From assembly GCA_010692645.1 (NCBI GenBank), contig JAAHGS010000018.1, forward strand, positions 62,588 to 126,587: a DNA stretch of 64,000 bases, given 5' to 3'. Position numbers and translations under genes: made by a program. Below are positions 16,000 to 18,560 of the stretch, piece by piece. Numbering within the stretch: position 1 is the first letter of the stretch; each line of letters starts with the position of its first letter. The notes below the pieces were generated by a model. The model did not search any database and was not told the DNA's origin. It worked only from the letters and a program-made list of their open reading frames with translations. The DNA comes from Symploca sp. SIO2E9 (GTDB taxonomy: Bacteria; Cyanobacteriota; Cyanobacteriia; Cyanobacteriales; Coleofasciculaceae).

Positions 16000-16362
16000 T
16001 TAACGACCACGGTCAAAACGCTGTTTAATACGAGTAGCTTTACCAACACGATCGCGCAAGTAATAAAGCTTCGCCCTACGCACTTTACCTCTACGAATTA
16101 TTTTAATACTGGCAACTCTAGGGGAATGGAGTAAAAACACCCTCTCCACACCCACGCCTTGGAAAATGCGACGCACGGTAATAGTTTCGTTGATACCGCC
16201 ATTACGCATAGCAATCACGGTACCTTCATAGGGCTGTACCCGCTCCTTGCCACCTTCTCGAATACGCACCCCAACTTTAACTGTGTCACCGACATAGATT
16301 GCCGGCAATTTTGATTTTAGTTGTTCCGCTTCAATGGAGCGAATAATTTCTTGACCCTTCAT
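16000..16362 (-). CDS. rplS: 50S ribosomal protein L19
   Basis: The 120-residue L19 lies at the 30S-50S interface. '[55 protein letters not shown]' and '[20 protein letters not shown]' identify it. The ATG at 16362 has GAAAGATG close by. Upstream on the same strand the iscB gene and its hairpin lie in what would have been the rplS promoter region, so rplS may now depend on sequence between 16363 and 16460. Confidence 0.97.
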
Positions 16363-16459
16363 CTTTCTTCCCCCGTGGAGACCCTCGTTATAATCAGCGC
16401 GGACGTATCGAACCTTAGGTGAGTACCGCGCATTGATTTAACGGTGGGAGGAAACGGGG

Positions 16460-16495
16460 GATATTTTACGGGGTTCAATACCCCTAAAATATCCA
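16460..16495 (-). terminator. Long hairpin just after iscB
   Basis: GGATATTTTA(C)GGGG and CCCC-TAAAATATCC pair almost perfectly around a seven-base loop, starting three bases after the iscB stop. It may be the transcript end of iscB, the palindromic right end of its element, or both. Confidence 0.55.
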
Positions 16496-16497
16496 AA

Positions 16498-17772
16498 TCA
16501 ATGTGCATAGGAATAACCGTCCTTTTTCTGAATGTGTTTGCAGTATTTGTGGCTAATACCTTGAATTAGCCCATTTACTGTTGAGATATTGAAACTACCA
16601 GTTGAACGCACTGCGACACGACCAACATAAGTTCCAATTTTTTTGCCAACAGTTACTATCGCTTTAACGATGTCTCCTGTCTGGAAGCTTTTGACAAACT
16701 TGTATCTAGGGACATACCGAGAAGGGAATCCAAACTTGTCAGTTCGACACATCTGGCGAGTACCATGACCAGTGGCAGTGATAGCCAGAGGCTTAGCAAC
16801 TAGCACCTTTAACCTTTCAGATATAGAACTTCCAACACAGGCAGCATCCAGCCAGTGAGTCTTCGGCAGTTCCTGACTAGTTCGATTAAATTTAGTCCTG
16901 CCACCAGTTCCCGTTTCGACGGCTAAACCCGTTTGTTTCAATGCCCGATACAATGCCCATCGGGTTGAATTGACGGCGGCGGCATCCTTGAGAGGGCGCT
17001 TGGCAGCAGCCAGTATGCCCTTGAGCAGCTCTGGCTTACGAGAGAGAAACTGCTCTACTGGCTTGTTCCCCTTCCTTTGGTTGCACTTAGTACAGGCTAG
17101 AGTTAGATTACTTACCCGGTTGGGGCCTCCTTTAGAGCGAGGCTGGATATGTTCGACCTCTAGAGGTACTCCTTCTTTGTGGCAGTAAGCGCACTTCCTA
17201 CCCCACTTCTCTAACAGGTACTCTCTAACTTCGTACCCAACCAACTCTCCCTGCTGGTACAACACTCCCGATACTTCGGGGTTTTGCATTAGCTGGATGT
17301 CGAAGCGCACTAACTCCATTGAGATAGCGCTAATAGGACAAAACCGCCGCAGCCGTTCTACCCAAGTTTTAATGGTTAACACCCGATGTTGTAGGCTCGG
17401 AGCTAACCAGCCGTCAGCTCTAGCTCGATTGTCGAACCGGGGTTGGCGATAGCGAGTGTGACGATTCCGGCGTCCTCGCCGCAATGCCCGACGAGACTCT
17501 AACGACTGCTTGATGCTGTAGCCCCGGTGGTGAAGTTCAGCTCCCCATATCACCCGGTCGTCAGTGACTACGGCAATACCAGTGGTTTTGGAGCCTGGGT
17601 CTAACTTGAGTCGATACTCAAGAGCATTAGAGCCTTCCACCTCTTTGAGCATGATTGTGAAAGGATACCGCCGCAGGACAACGGCTCTTCCTTCCTTGAG
17701 AAACCTTCTCGCCCTTGCCGCATGGGTTGGGTTAAGAGAGTTTCGATTTTTATCTACAGTTAAAACAAACAT
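16498..17772 (-). CDS. iscB: RNA-guided endonuclease IscB
   Basis: The 424-residue IscB is the transposon-encoded ancestor type of Cas9. The N-terminal PLMP-like segment is 'NSLNPTHAARARRFLKEGRAVV'. RuvC-I has D58 in 'LKLDPGSKTTGIAV', then the Arg-rich bridge helix 'RRALRRGRRNRHTRYR'. RuvC-II has E153 in 'ISMELVRFD'. The HNH domain (193-237) has CAYC and CTKC zinc pairs, H208 in 'EVEHI' and N222. RuvC-III has H306 and D309 in 'THWLDA'. A C-terminal target-interacting region follows (RTDKFGFPSRYVPRYKFVK). All catalytic residues are present and the frame is intact, so it may be active. It has no tnpA beside it. The guide RNA is encoded just upstream. Confidence 0.93.
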   Translation of the reverse strand: MFVLTVDKNRNSLNPTHAARARRFLKEGRAVVLRRYPFTIMLKEVEGSNALEYRLKLDPGSKTTGIAVVTDDRVIWGAELHHRGYSIKQSLESRRALRRGRRNRHTRYRQPRFDNRARADGWLAPSLQHRVLTIKTWVERLRRFCPISAISMELVRFDIQLMQNPEVSGVLYQQGELVGYEVREYLLEKWGRKCAYCHKEGVPLEVEHIQPRSKGGPNRVSNLTLACTKCNQRKGNKPVEQFLSRKPELLKGILAAAKRPLKDAAAVNSTRWALYRALKQTGLAVETGTGGRTKFNRTSQELPKTHWLDAACVGSSISERLKVLVAKPLAITATGHGTRQMCRTDKFGFPSRYVPRYKFVKSFQTGDIVKAIVTVGKKIGTYVGRVAVRSTGSFNISTVNGLIQGISHKYCKHIQKKDGYSYAH

Positions 17773-18086
17773 GAGTTCTAATCTCCCGTTTCCGGGGTGA
17801 AAGTTTGCCTCGAAGTTGTTATCGGTCGGTACTTTCTCCTAGACACTGGCTTAACCCTCTACGCCTGTTTAATGTAGGAGTTGTAGAGCTTGGGGCTGGC
17901 ACGCACTCCAAGGTACGAACTTTAACTCTTGCCGATAACGGCTACTTGGTTACTACCAAGTCTTCTGGTCAACTAGGGCTGTTTTTCAAGCCCCCGTTTT
18001 ACGCCTTTGGCGCATGCCCGTAGGGCTATTACCCGTAGGGTTAACGGTGGGTTGTTGACTGGCTTTTTAAAATCCCAGCCTCTCAT
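17773..18086 (-). ncRNA. IscB omegaRNA (HEARO-type), approximate bounds
   Basis: About 300 bp upstream of iscB on the same strand is non-coding, unusually GC-rich and full of stems. Examples (minus-strand sense) are TAACCCTACGGGTAATAGCCCTACGGG with nested pairing, ACTTGGTAGTAACCAAGT, and GCCGTTATCGGC. This is the position and character of HEARO/omegaRNA, the guide RNA of IscB. By analogy the scaffold begins near 18068 (AAAAAGCCAGTCAAC) and the roughly 16-nt guide lies just 5' of it, at about 18069-18086, in flanking DNA. The bounds are inferred. Confidence 0.75.
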
Positions 18087-18126
18087 TATACCTCTATTAC
18101 CGCTATCAAGTCTAGATTATTTTATT

Positions 18127-18193
18127 GACGCGGAGACGCGGAGATGCGGAGACAGGTCGACGCGGAGACGCGGAGACGCGGAGACACGGAGAC
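18127..18193. repeat. 8-bp short tandem repeat array (GACGCGGA)
   Basis: Eight units of GACGCGGA and variants, broken by one GACAGGTC, lie just outside the 5' end of the omegaRNA region. The same octamer forms the core of family D MITEs at 46100 and 63355. It belongs to the short tandemly repeated sequences common in filamentous cyanobacteria. Confidence 0.8.
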
Positions 18194-18560
18194 TGATATA
18201 TCACAGGCATTGATTAAATAGAATGCATACCAAACAAGGGTTTTGAGCCTTTTTTGACCCTTTCAAGTGCTTTGTTATAGCATCCAATAGCTCAAAATCC
18301 TTGCACTTAATAGGAAAATCTCGGAGCTGATCATGGATAATCAAGCTTAGAACTATCGGCTTTTCCCTACTTCCTGCTCCCTGCTCCCCTCTCCTTACCA
18401 CCAGACTTATTCAGCAAACCCTATGTAAACCAGCGATTAACTCTATTCCTAGCCAAGTGGAAAGGAAAGTTAACCGCCGATTTTTTCATTGTTAATTGTT
18501 AATGGTTCATAGGCCCATGAACAATCAACAATGAGCAATGAAGCATAAACCACAAAAAAT
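18194..18560. other. Intergenic gap downstream of porin gene
   Basis: Apart from one CTCCCTGCTCCC polypyrimidine tract near 18370-18395, a near-palindrome around 18480-18540 (CATTGTTAATTGTTAATG... and ATTGTTGATTGTTCATGG on the other strand) and scattered AT-rich sequence, I see nothing here. The short frame at 18201-18401 has no recognisable homologue and crosses the repeat tract. Confidence 0.4.

What the first reader, a model, noticed from the sequence alone, without database searches (positions are those of the whole stretch)
16460..18090. Intact IscB with its omegaRNA, next to ribosomal gene rplS
All RuvC and HNH catalytic residues and the bridge helix are present, and about 300 bp of structured non-coding DNA lies upstream as in HEARO/IscB systems. 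There is no transposase. The putative guide would be taken from about 18069-18086, just inside a GACGCGGA repeat array, which is an unusual flank. The element lies in the promoter region of rplS.
Basis: partly seen in the sequence, partly recalled or inferred. Interest (0 to 1): 0.7.

Follow-up and report, generated by a model that had tools for sequence, protein, structure and literature searches.

The report
RNA-guided transposon on a start codon
A cyanobacterial IscB element (a small Cas9-like nuclease with its guide RNA) has inserted exactly at the start codon of the ribosomal protein gene rplS, so the gene's own promoter now reads into the guide RNA, and most relatives of this element also sit exactly on start codons, a habit for which I found no earlier description in the papers I could search.

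Summary
Its boundaries and flank were wrong. An empty site in a congener and sister copies fix the element at 16363-18059. It is inserted, without target duplication, exactly at the rplS start codon: the motif next to its right end, ATGA, is rplS's own ATG-A. A second copy in the same genome sits exactly on the hypD start codon, also with an exact empty site in the congener. The predicted guide (about 18060-18079) is the rplS leader, just behind the conserved rplS promoter, not in the GACGCGGA array (18127-18193). Across 62 distinct insertions of related elements, 45 (73%) lie on the start codon of an ORF; about 9% of other ATGA sites in the same flanks do, and 29% when gene interiors are left out (Fisher 5e-12). 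Most right ends finish in a Shine-Dalgarno-like tract 5-9 nt before that ATG. I infer a lifestyle: land on start codons, borrow the host promoter for the guide RNA, and leave the gene a ribosome-binding site. Identity and position are shown; expression, cleavage and ribosome binding are inferred.

The parts
16363..18059 (-). whole IscB/HEARO element (1697 bp), left end GTCAACAACC..., right end ...CCACGGGGGAAGAAAG
   Evidence: empty site in congener L031; right end shared with the hypD copy and alignment-end consensus; HEARO model start
17799..18059 (-). HEARO/omega-RNA scaffold
   Evidence: RF02033, 116.6 bits, model 1-211 complete
18060..18079 (-). inferred guide (16-20 nt), GCTGGGATTTTAAAAAGCCA, which is the rplS 5' leader
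   Evidence: abuts the omega-RNA 5' end; the homologous leader precedes ATGA in the empty site, differing by AT to GC three and four bases before the TAM; leader and promoter conserved in relatives. Guide length inferred.
16498..17772 (-). iscB, 424 aa, RuvC and HNH residues intact
   Evidence: dN/dS 0.09-0.19 against sister copies
16370..16460 (-). right-end hairpin with internal loop TTTCC/TCTCC; its 3' arm ACGGGGG is the SD-like tract
   Evidence: fold; the equivalent hairpin in 16 relatives has compensatory changes at 13 of 20 pairs
16363..16376 (-). Shine-Dalgarno-like tail ACGGGGGAAGAAAG immediately before the rplS ATG
   Evidence: sequence; duplex-energy comparison over the family. Function inferred.
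16359..16362 (-). element-flanking motif / inferred TAM ATGA = rplS start codon plus first base of codon 2
   Evidence: right ends abut ATGA in 60 of 62 distinct insertions, GTGA in 2
16000..16362 (-). rplS (ribosomal protein L19)
   Evidence: PF01245 E=7e-47; same start codon in the relatives shown
18085..18114 (-). rplS promoter: TAGACT - 18 nt - TATAAT; expected +1 near 18078
   Evidence: 10 of 12 matches; same layout in rplS of the congener and, with variations, of many other cyanobacteria. Start site inferred.
16461..16492 (-). extra hairpin after the iscB stop (GATATTTTAGGGG...CCCCGTAAAATATC), present only in some sister copies

Best explanation
This is a transposase-less IscB (ISC/HEARO) mobile element that inserted exactly between the rplS leader and the rplS start codon, using ATGA (start codon plus one base) as its flanking/TAM motif. 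Shown: identity, exact ends, no target duplication, empty site, and that most copies of this clade sit on start codons. Inferred: the host gene's promoter transcribes one RNA, leader(guide)-omegaRNA-iscB-right end-rplS. The leader thereby becomes the guide, aimed at any allele that still has leader plus ATGA intact (the empty site). IscB cuts such empty alleles and favours the copy that carries the element. The right end supplies a Shine-Dalgarno-like tract at the right distance from the ATG, so the interrupted gene stays translatable. Landing on start codons thus gives the element a promoter and a lasting target without killing the host gene.
For: HEARO and IscB identity. Two exact empty sites in the congener: rplS and hypD (AAAAATATTAAATTGAG|ATGAAATACG), with the shared right end in the second copy. 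In 62 distinct related insertions 45 are start codons of ORFs >=60 aa without long upstream extension, against 9.4% (163/1738) of other ATGA in the same flanks; leaving out gene interiors 45/60 against 29%, Fisher 5e-12; stricter criteria 37/62 against 5.8%. Interrupted genes include HypD, glutaredoxin, FabH-like, RmlD, peroxidase/KatG-like, STAS, ArsR and ParB, several with the Pfam domain starting at residues 3-5. SD-like tails (duplex <=-6 kcal/mol) in 78% of right ends against 20% of the leaders they displace. The rplS promoter is the only consensus promoter found in 16300-18250 and is conserved. dN/dS 0.09-0.19. One parB insertion is retained in four Nostoc species with intact IscB.
Against: No expression, cleavage or translation data. 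In the main right-end type the SD-like tract is the paired arm of a strong hairpin, so it may be occluded, and it may exist for transposition rather than translation. SD strength and start-codon position are only weakly associated (Fisher p=0.16 within the ATGA set; 0.016 after pooling with the ATGG group), with related sequences counted separately. A sister ATGG-type group without SD tails also shows start codons (4/10). The rplS guide differs from the congener's allele at two TAM-proximal bases. Start codons were called from ORFs, not from annotation or proteomics.
Confidence: 0.7

Rival explanations
1. Ordinary IscB transposition next to ATGA anywhere; insertions inside genes are lost, and start codons merely count among the harmless sites. 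No start-codon lifestyle.
For: ATGA/NTGA TAMs are known for IsrB (PMC9581776), so chance overlap with start codons is expected; 15 of 62 insertions are plainly intergenic.
Against: With gene interiors removed only 29% of ATGA sites are start-like, against 75% of the insertions outside gene interiors. Selection against promoter damage could add to this and was not modelled.
Confidence: 0.3
2. The Shine-Dalgarno-like tail is a by-product of the single-stranded DNA hairpin that a Y1 transposase would recognise at the right end, with no role in translation.
For: The tract is the 3' arm of a covarying hairpin with almost no G-T pairs; many IS200/IS605 ends carry such hairpins (established knowledge).
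Against: Other right-end types (CGTGAGGTTTTT|ATGA, CCGAGGATTTTGT|ATGA, CGGAGGTTTTTAG|RTGA) also carry GAGG/GGAGG at SD spacing, outside the main conserved hairpin.
Confidence: 0.4
3. A domesticated regulator of rplS, comparable to TnpB-derived repressors.
For: It sits between promoter and ORF of an essential gene.
Against: All catalytic residues are present; the insertion is absent from the congener and the other relatives whose rplS start region was read; sister copies sit at unrelated genes.
Confidence: 0.05
4. An immobile relic that happens to be intact.
For: No transposase in the element; none of the 13 Y1-transposase matches in the genome shares its ends.
Against: Intact ORF, purifying selection between copies, two copies absent from the congener.
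Confidence: 0.15

Closest known systems
HEARO RNA (Rfam RF02033)
   Same: complete 1-211 match above the gathering score, directly upstream of an HNH/IscB ORF; from memory the original description placed these elements next to ATGA/GTGA
   Different: nothing structural; that the ATGA is usually a gene's start codon was not found in the papers I could search
IscB of ISC transposons (e.g. OgeuIscB, PDB 7xht/7utn)
   Same: RuvC and HNH residues, bridge-helix region, upstream omega-RNA
   Different: 424 aa; flanking motif here ATGA; clade largely cyanobacterial; right end carries an SD-like tract
IsrB (DtIsrB, CwIsrB, DsIsrB)
   Same: NTGA/NTG/NTGG-type TAMs reported (PMC9581776), related omega-RNA
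   Different: IsrB lacks the HNH domain; this protein has it
IS200/IS605-family elements with TnpB
   Same: no target duplication, a flanking motif kept on one side, a guide read from the other flank, hairpin near an end
   Different: guide at the 5' rather than the 3' end; no tnpA in the element

Membership tests
HEARO / omega-RNA (RF02033) | covariance-model match above the gathering score | tested here: met
   116.6 bits against 83, full model
IscB | split RuvC with D/E/H-D residues, RRXRR N-terminus and an HNH insert | tested here: met
IscB | omega-RNA-guided double-strand cleavage next to a TAM | not testable with these tools
   needs biochemistry
ISC / IS200-IS605-like transposon | precise insertion without target duplication beside a fixed motif | tested here: met
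   two empty sites; ATGA in 60 and GTGA in 2 of 62 insertions
ISC / IS200-IS605-like transposon | hairpin structure near an end | tested here: met
   right-end hairpin of relatives, 13 of 20 pairs with compensatory changes
ISC / IS200-IS605-like transposon | Y1 transposase in the element | tested here: not met
   only iscB lies between the ends; Y1 genes elsewhere in the genome show no shared ends. So non-autonomous at best.
IsrB | RuvC without HNH | tested here: not met
   HNH present
TldR-like nuclease-dead repressor | lost catalytic residues | tested here: not met
   residues intact

The most novel reading that the evidence does not exclude
A lineage of IscB transposons specialised for start codons: the TAM is the start codon, the host promoter makes the guide RNA from the gene's own leader, and the element's right end donates a ribosome-binding site (possibly gated by its hairpin), so the element can sit in essential genes and home into every empty allele.
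Probability: 0.45. Interest if true: 0.78.

Novelty: new variant of a known kind. Interest (0 to 1): 0.6.

Why it matters
It would explain how transposase-poor IscB elements persist and how their guide RNAs are expressed: they take the promoter and leader of a host gene and keep that gene working. It turns 'what do these nucleases do for the element' into a direct test at named genes (rplS, hypD, parB). It also gives a natural example of a mobile element whose target motif is the start codon itself.

Tried and rejected
I first placed the left boundary by maximal match at ATTGAT/TTTTT, which would suggest a TTGAT target; rejected because the second copy shares the right end up to the ATG. Guide self-targets: 40 sites with <=3 mismatches in the genome against 26 for the reversed control, so no real second target. 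Promoter proximity in general: TATAAT-like motifs at -100..-20 of insertions are not clearly enriched (25 against 18 of 45). A Y1 transposase sharing the element's ends: none found. The right ends of many 52-57%-identical IscBs could not be delimited. The first 39-insertion survey used hand-entered end strings; the larger one found ends automatically. One insertion with a CTGA call (L117) is a likely misjudged end and was dropped. The founding papers (Weinberg 2009, Kapitonov 2015, Altae-Tran 2021) are not held, so I could not check whether they mention start codons.

Full report
WHAT IS THERE. On the minus strand, 17799-18059 matches Rfam HEARO over its whole length (116.6 bits, E 2.1e-23). 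Immediately downstream lies a 424-aa ORF, 16498-17772, with RRXRR and HNH domains. It aligns with solved IscB chains and carries D58, E153, H208, N231, H306, D309 and two CxxC pairs.

EXACT ENDS. The same-genus genome G001 (probably Symploca sp. SIO3C6, since the contig lengths are equal) has the empty rplS site...TATAATTGGAGGCTGGGATTTTAAAAAATCA|ATGAAGGG, where ATG starts rplS. The window reads ...TATAATGAGAGGCTGGGATTTTAAAAAGCCA|GTCAAC(omega-RNA)...CCACGGGGGAAGAAAG|ATGAAGGG. A sister copy, split between two contigs, has the same right end followed by the hypD start codon. Its empty site in G001 is exact (AAAAATATTAAATTGAG|ATGAAATACG), and the ORF is HypD. The join of the two contigs is inferred from that site. 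The element is therefore 16363-18059, without target duplication, abutting the rplS start codon. A third copy (C146) also ends at an ORF's ATGA (1002 aa).

PROMOTER AND GUIDE. The rplS promoter TAGACT-18-TATAAT (18114-18085) is the only consensus promoter in the region. Its layout recurs upstream of rplS in the congener and, with variations, in many other cyanobacteria, whose short leaders also end directly at an ATGA start codon in the sequences displayed. The expected transcript would start about 19 nt before the omega-RNA, so its 5' end would be the guide. The GACGCGGA array lies at 18127-18193, away from the guide.

A FAMILY HABIT. I gathered related loci from public genomes. Left ends came from the HEARO model or from alignment to those. 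Right ends came from where alignments between copies at different sites stop. Of 62 distinct insertions with RTGA (60 ATGA, 2 GTGA), 45 are start codons: an ORF of at least 60 aa and no in-frame start more than 50 codons upstream in the rejoined flanks. Other ATGA sites in the same flanks meet this in 9.4% of cases (163/1738). Leaving out gene interiors gives 45/60 against 160/550, Fisher p 5e-12; stricter criteria give 37/62 against 5.8%. A first hand-curated set gave 29/39. A sister group whose right ends abut ATGG shows 4 of 10 (one of the four without a located left end). Copies within a genome are separate insertions, but the elements are related, so the p-values describe insertions and not lineages.

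RIGHT END. The tail before the ATG pairs with the 16S anti-Shine-Dalgarno sequence at <=-6 kcal/mol in 78% of insertions, against 20% of the native leaders displaced. Examples are AAGGAGGTAGAAAG|ATGA, CGGGAGGCGGACAG|ATGA and CCCGTGAGGTTTTT|ATGA. In the commonest type this tract is the 3' arm of a hairpin supported by compensatory changes at 13 of 20 pairs. It could thus be masked in the mRNA, or serve transposition. The link between SD strength and start-codon position is weak.

MECHANISM. Shown: identity, ends, empty sites, start-codon excess. Inferred: promoter capture, guide from the leader, cleavage of empty alleles (the established role proposed for such nucleases), donation of a ribosome-binding site. 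Selection keeps the protein intact (dN/dS 0.09-0.19), and four Nostoc species keep one parB start-codon insertion with intact iscB.

KNOWN OR NEW. The element is a member of HEARO/IscB. NTGA, NTG and NTGG TAMs are known for IsrB (PMC9581776), and ATGA/GTGA neighbours were noted for HEARO, from memory. PMC9755519 reports that few HEARO nucleases lie near TnpA, which fits. Searches of the held papers found nothing on start codons or ribosome-binding sites at IscB right ends, but key papers are not held. Hence: new variant of a known kind, with the habit, not the nuclease, as the new part.

Noticed in passing
L129 and L138 (Nostoc parB locus): Same parB start-codon insertion in both, but synonymous divergence of IscB (0.018) is far below that of the adjacent ParB gene (0.179), as if the element had moved or been converted between strains at the same site.
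   Followed up: partly
L156 (G001 contig, probably Symploca sp. SIO3C6): A congener copy of the same IscB reduced to its last 74 codons beside a group II intron match, with the right end intact before an ATGA.
   Followed up: no
L098 2033-2249(-) and 2747-2969(+): Two HEARO RNAs in opposite orientation within 1 kb in Planktothrix sp. PCC 11201.
   Followed up: no
L186, L191, L193-L207: Sister IscB group whose right ends abut ATGG instead of ATGA and lack the SD-like tail; 4 of 10 on start codons.
   Followed up: partly
window 18127-18193: GACGCGGA tandem array, 8.4 copies, upstream of the rplS promoter; similar arrays lie near other element copies in this genome.
   Followed up: no
L139 Dictyobacter, L142 Desulfobacterales, L146 Nitrospirales: IscBs 49-66% identical to this one outside cyanobacteria, suggesting transfer across phyla (or, for MAGs, mis-binning).
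   Followed up: no
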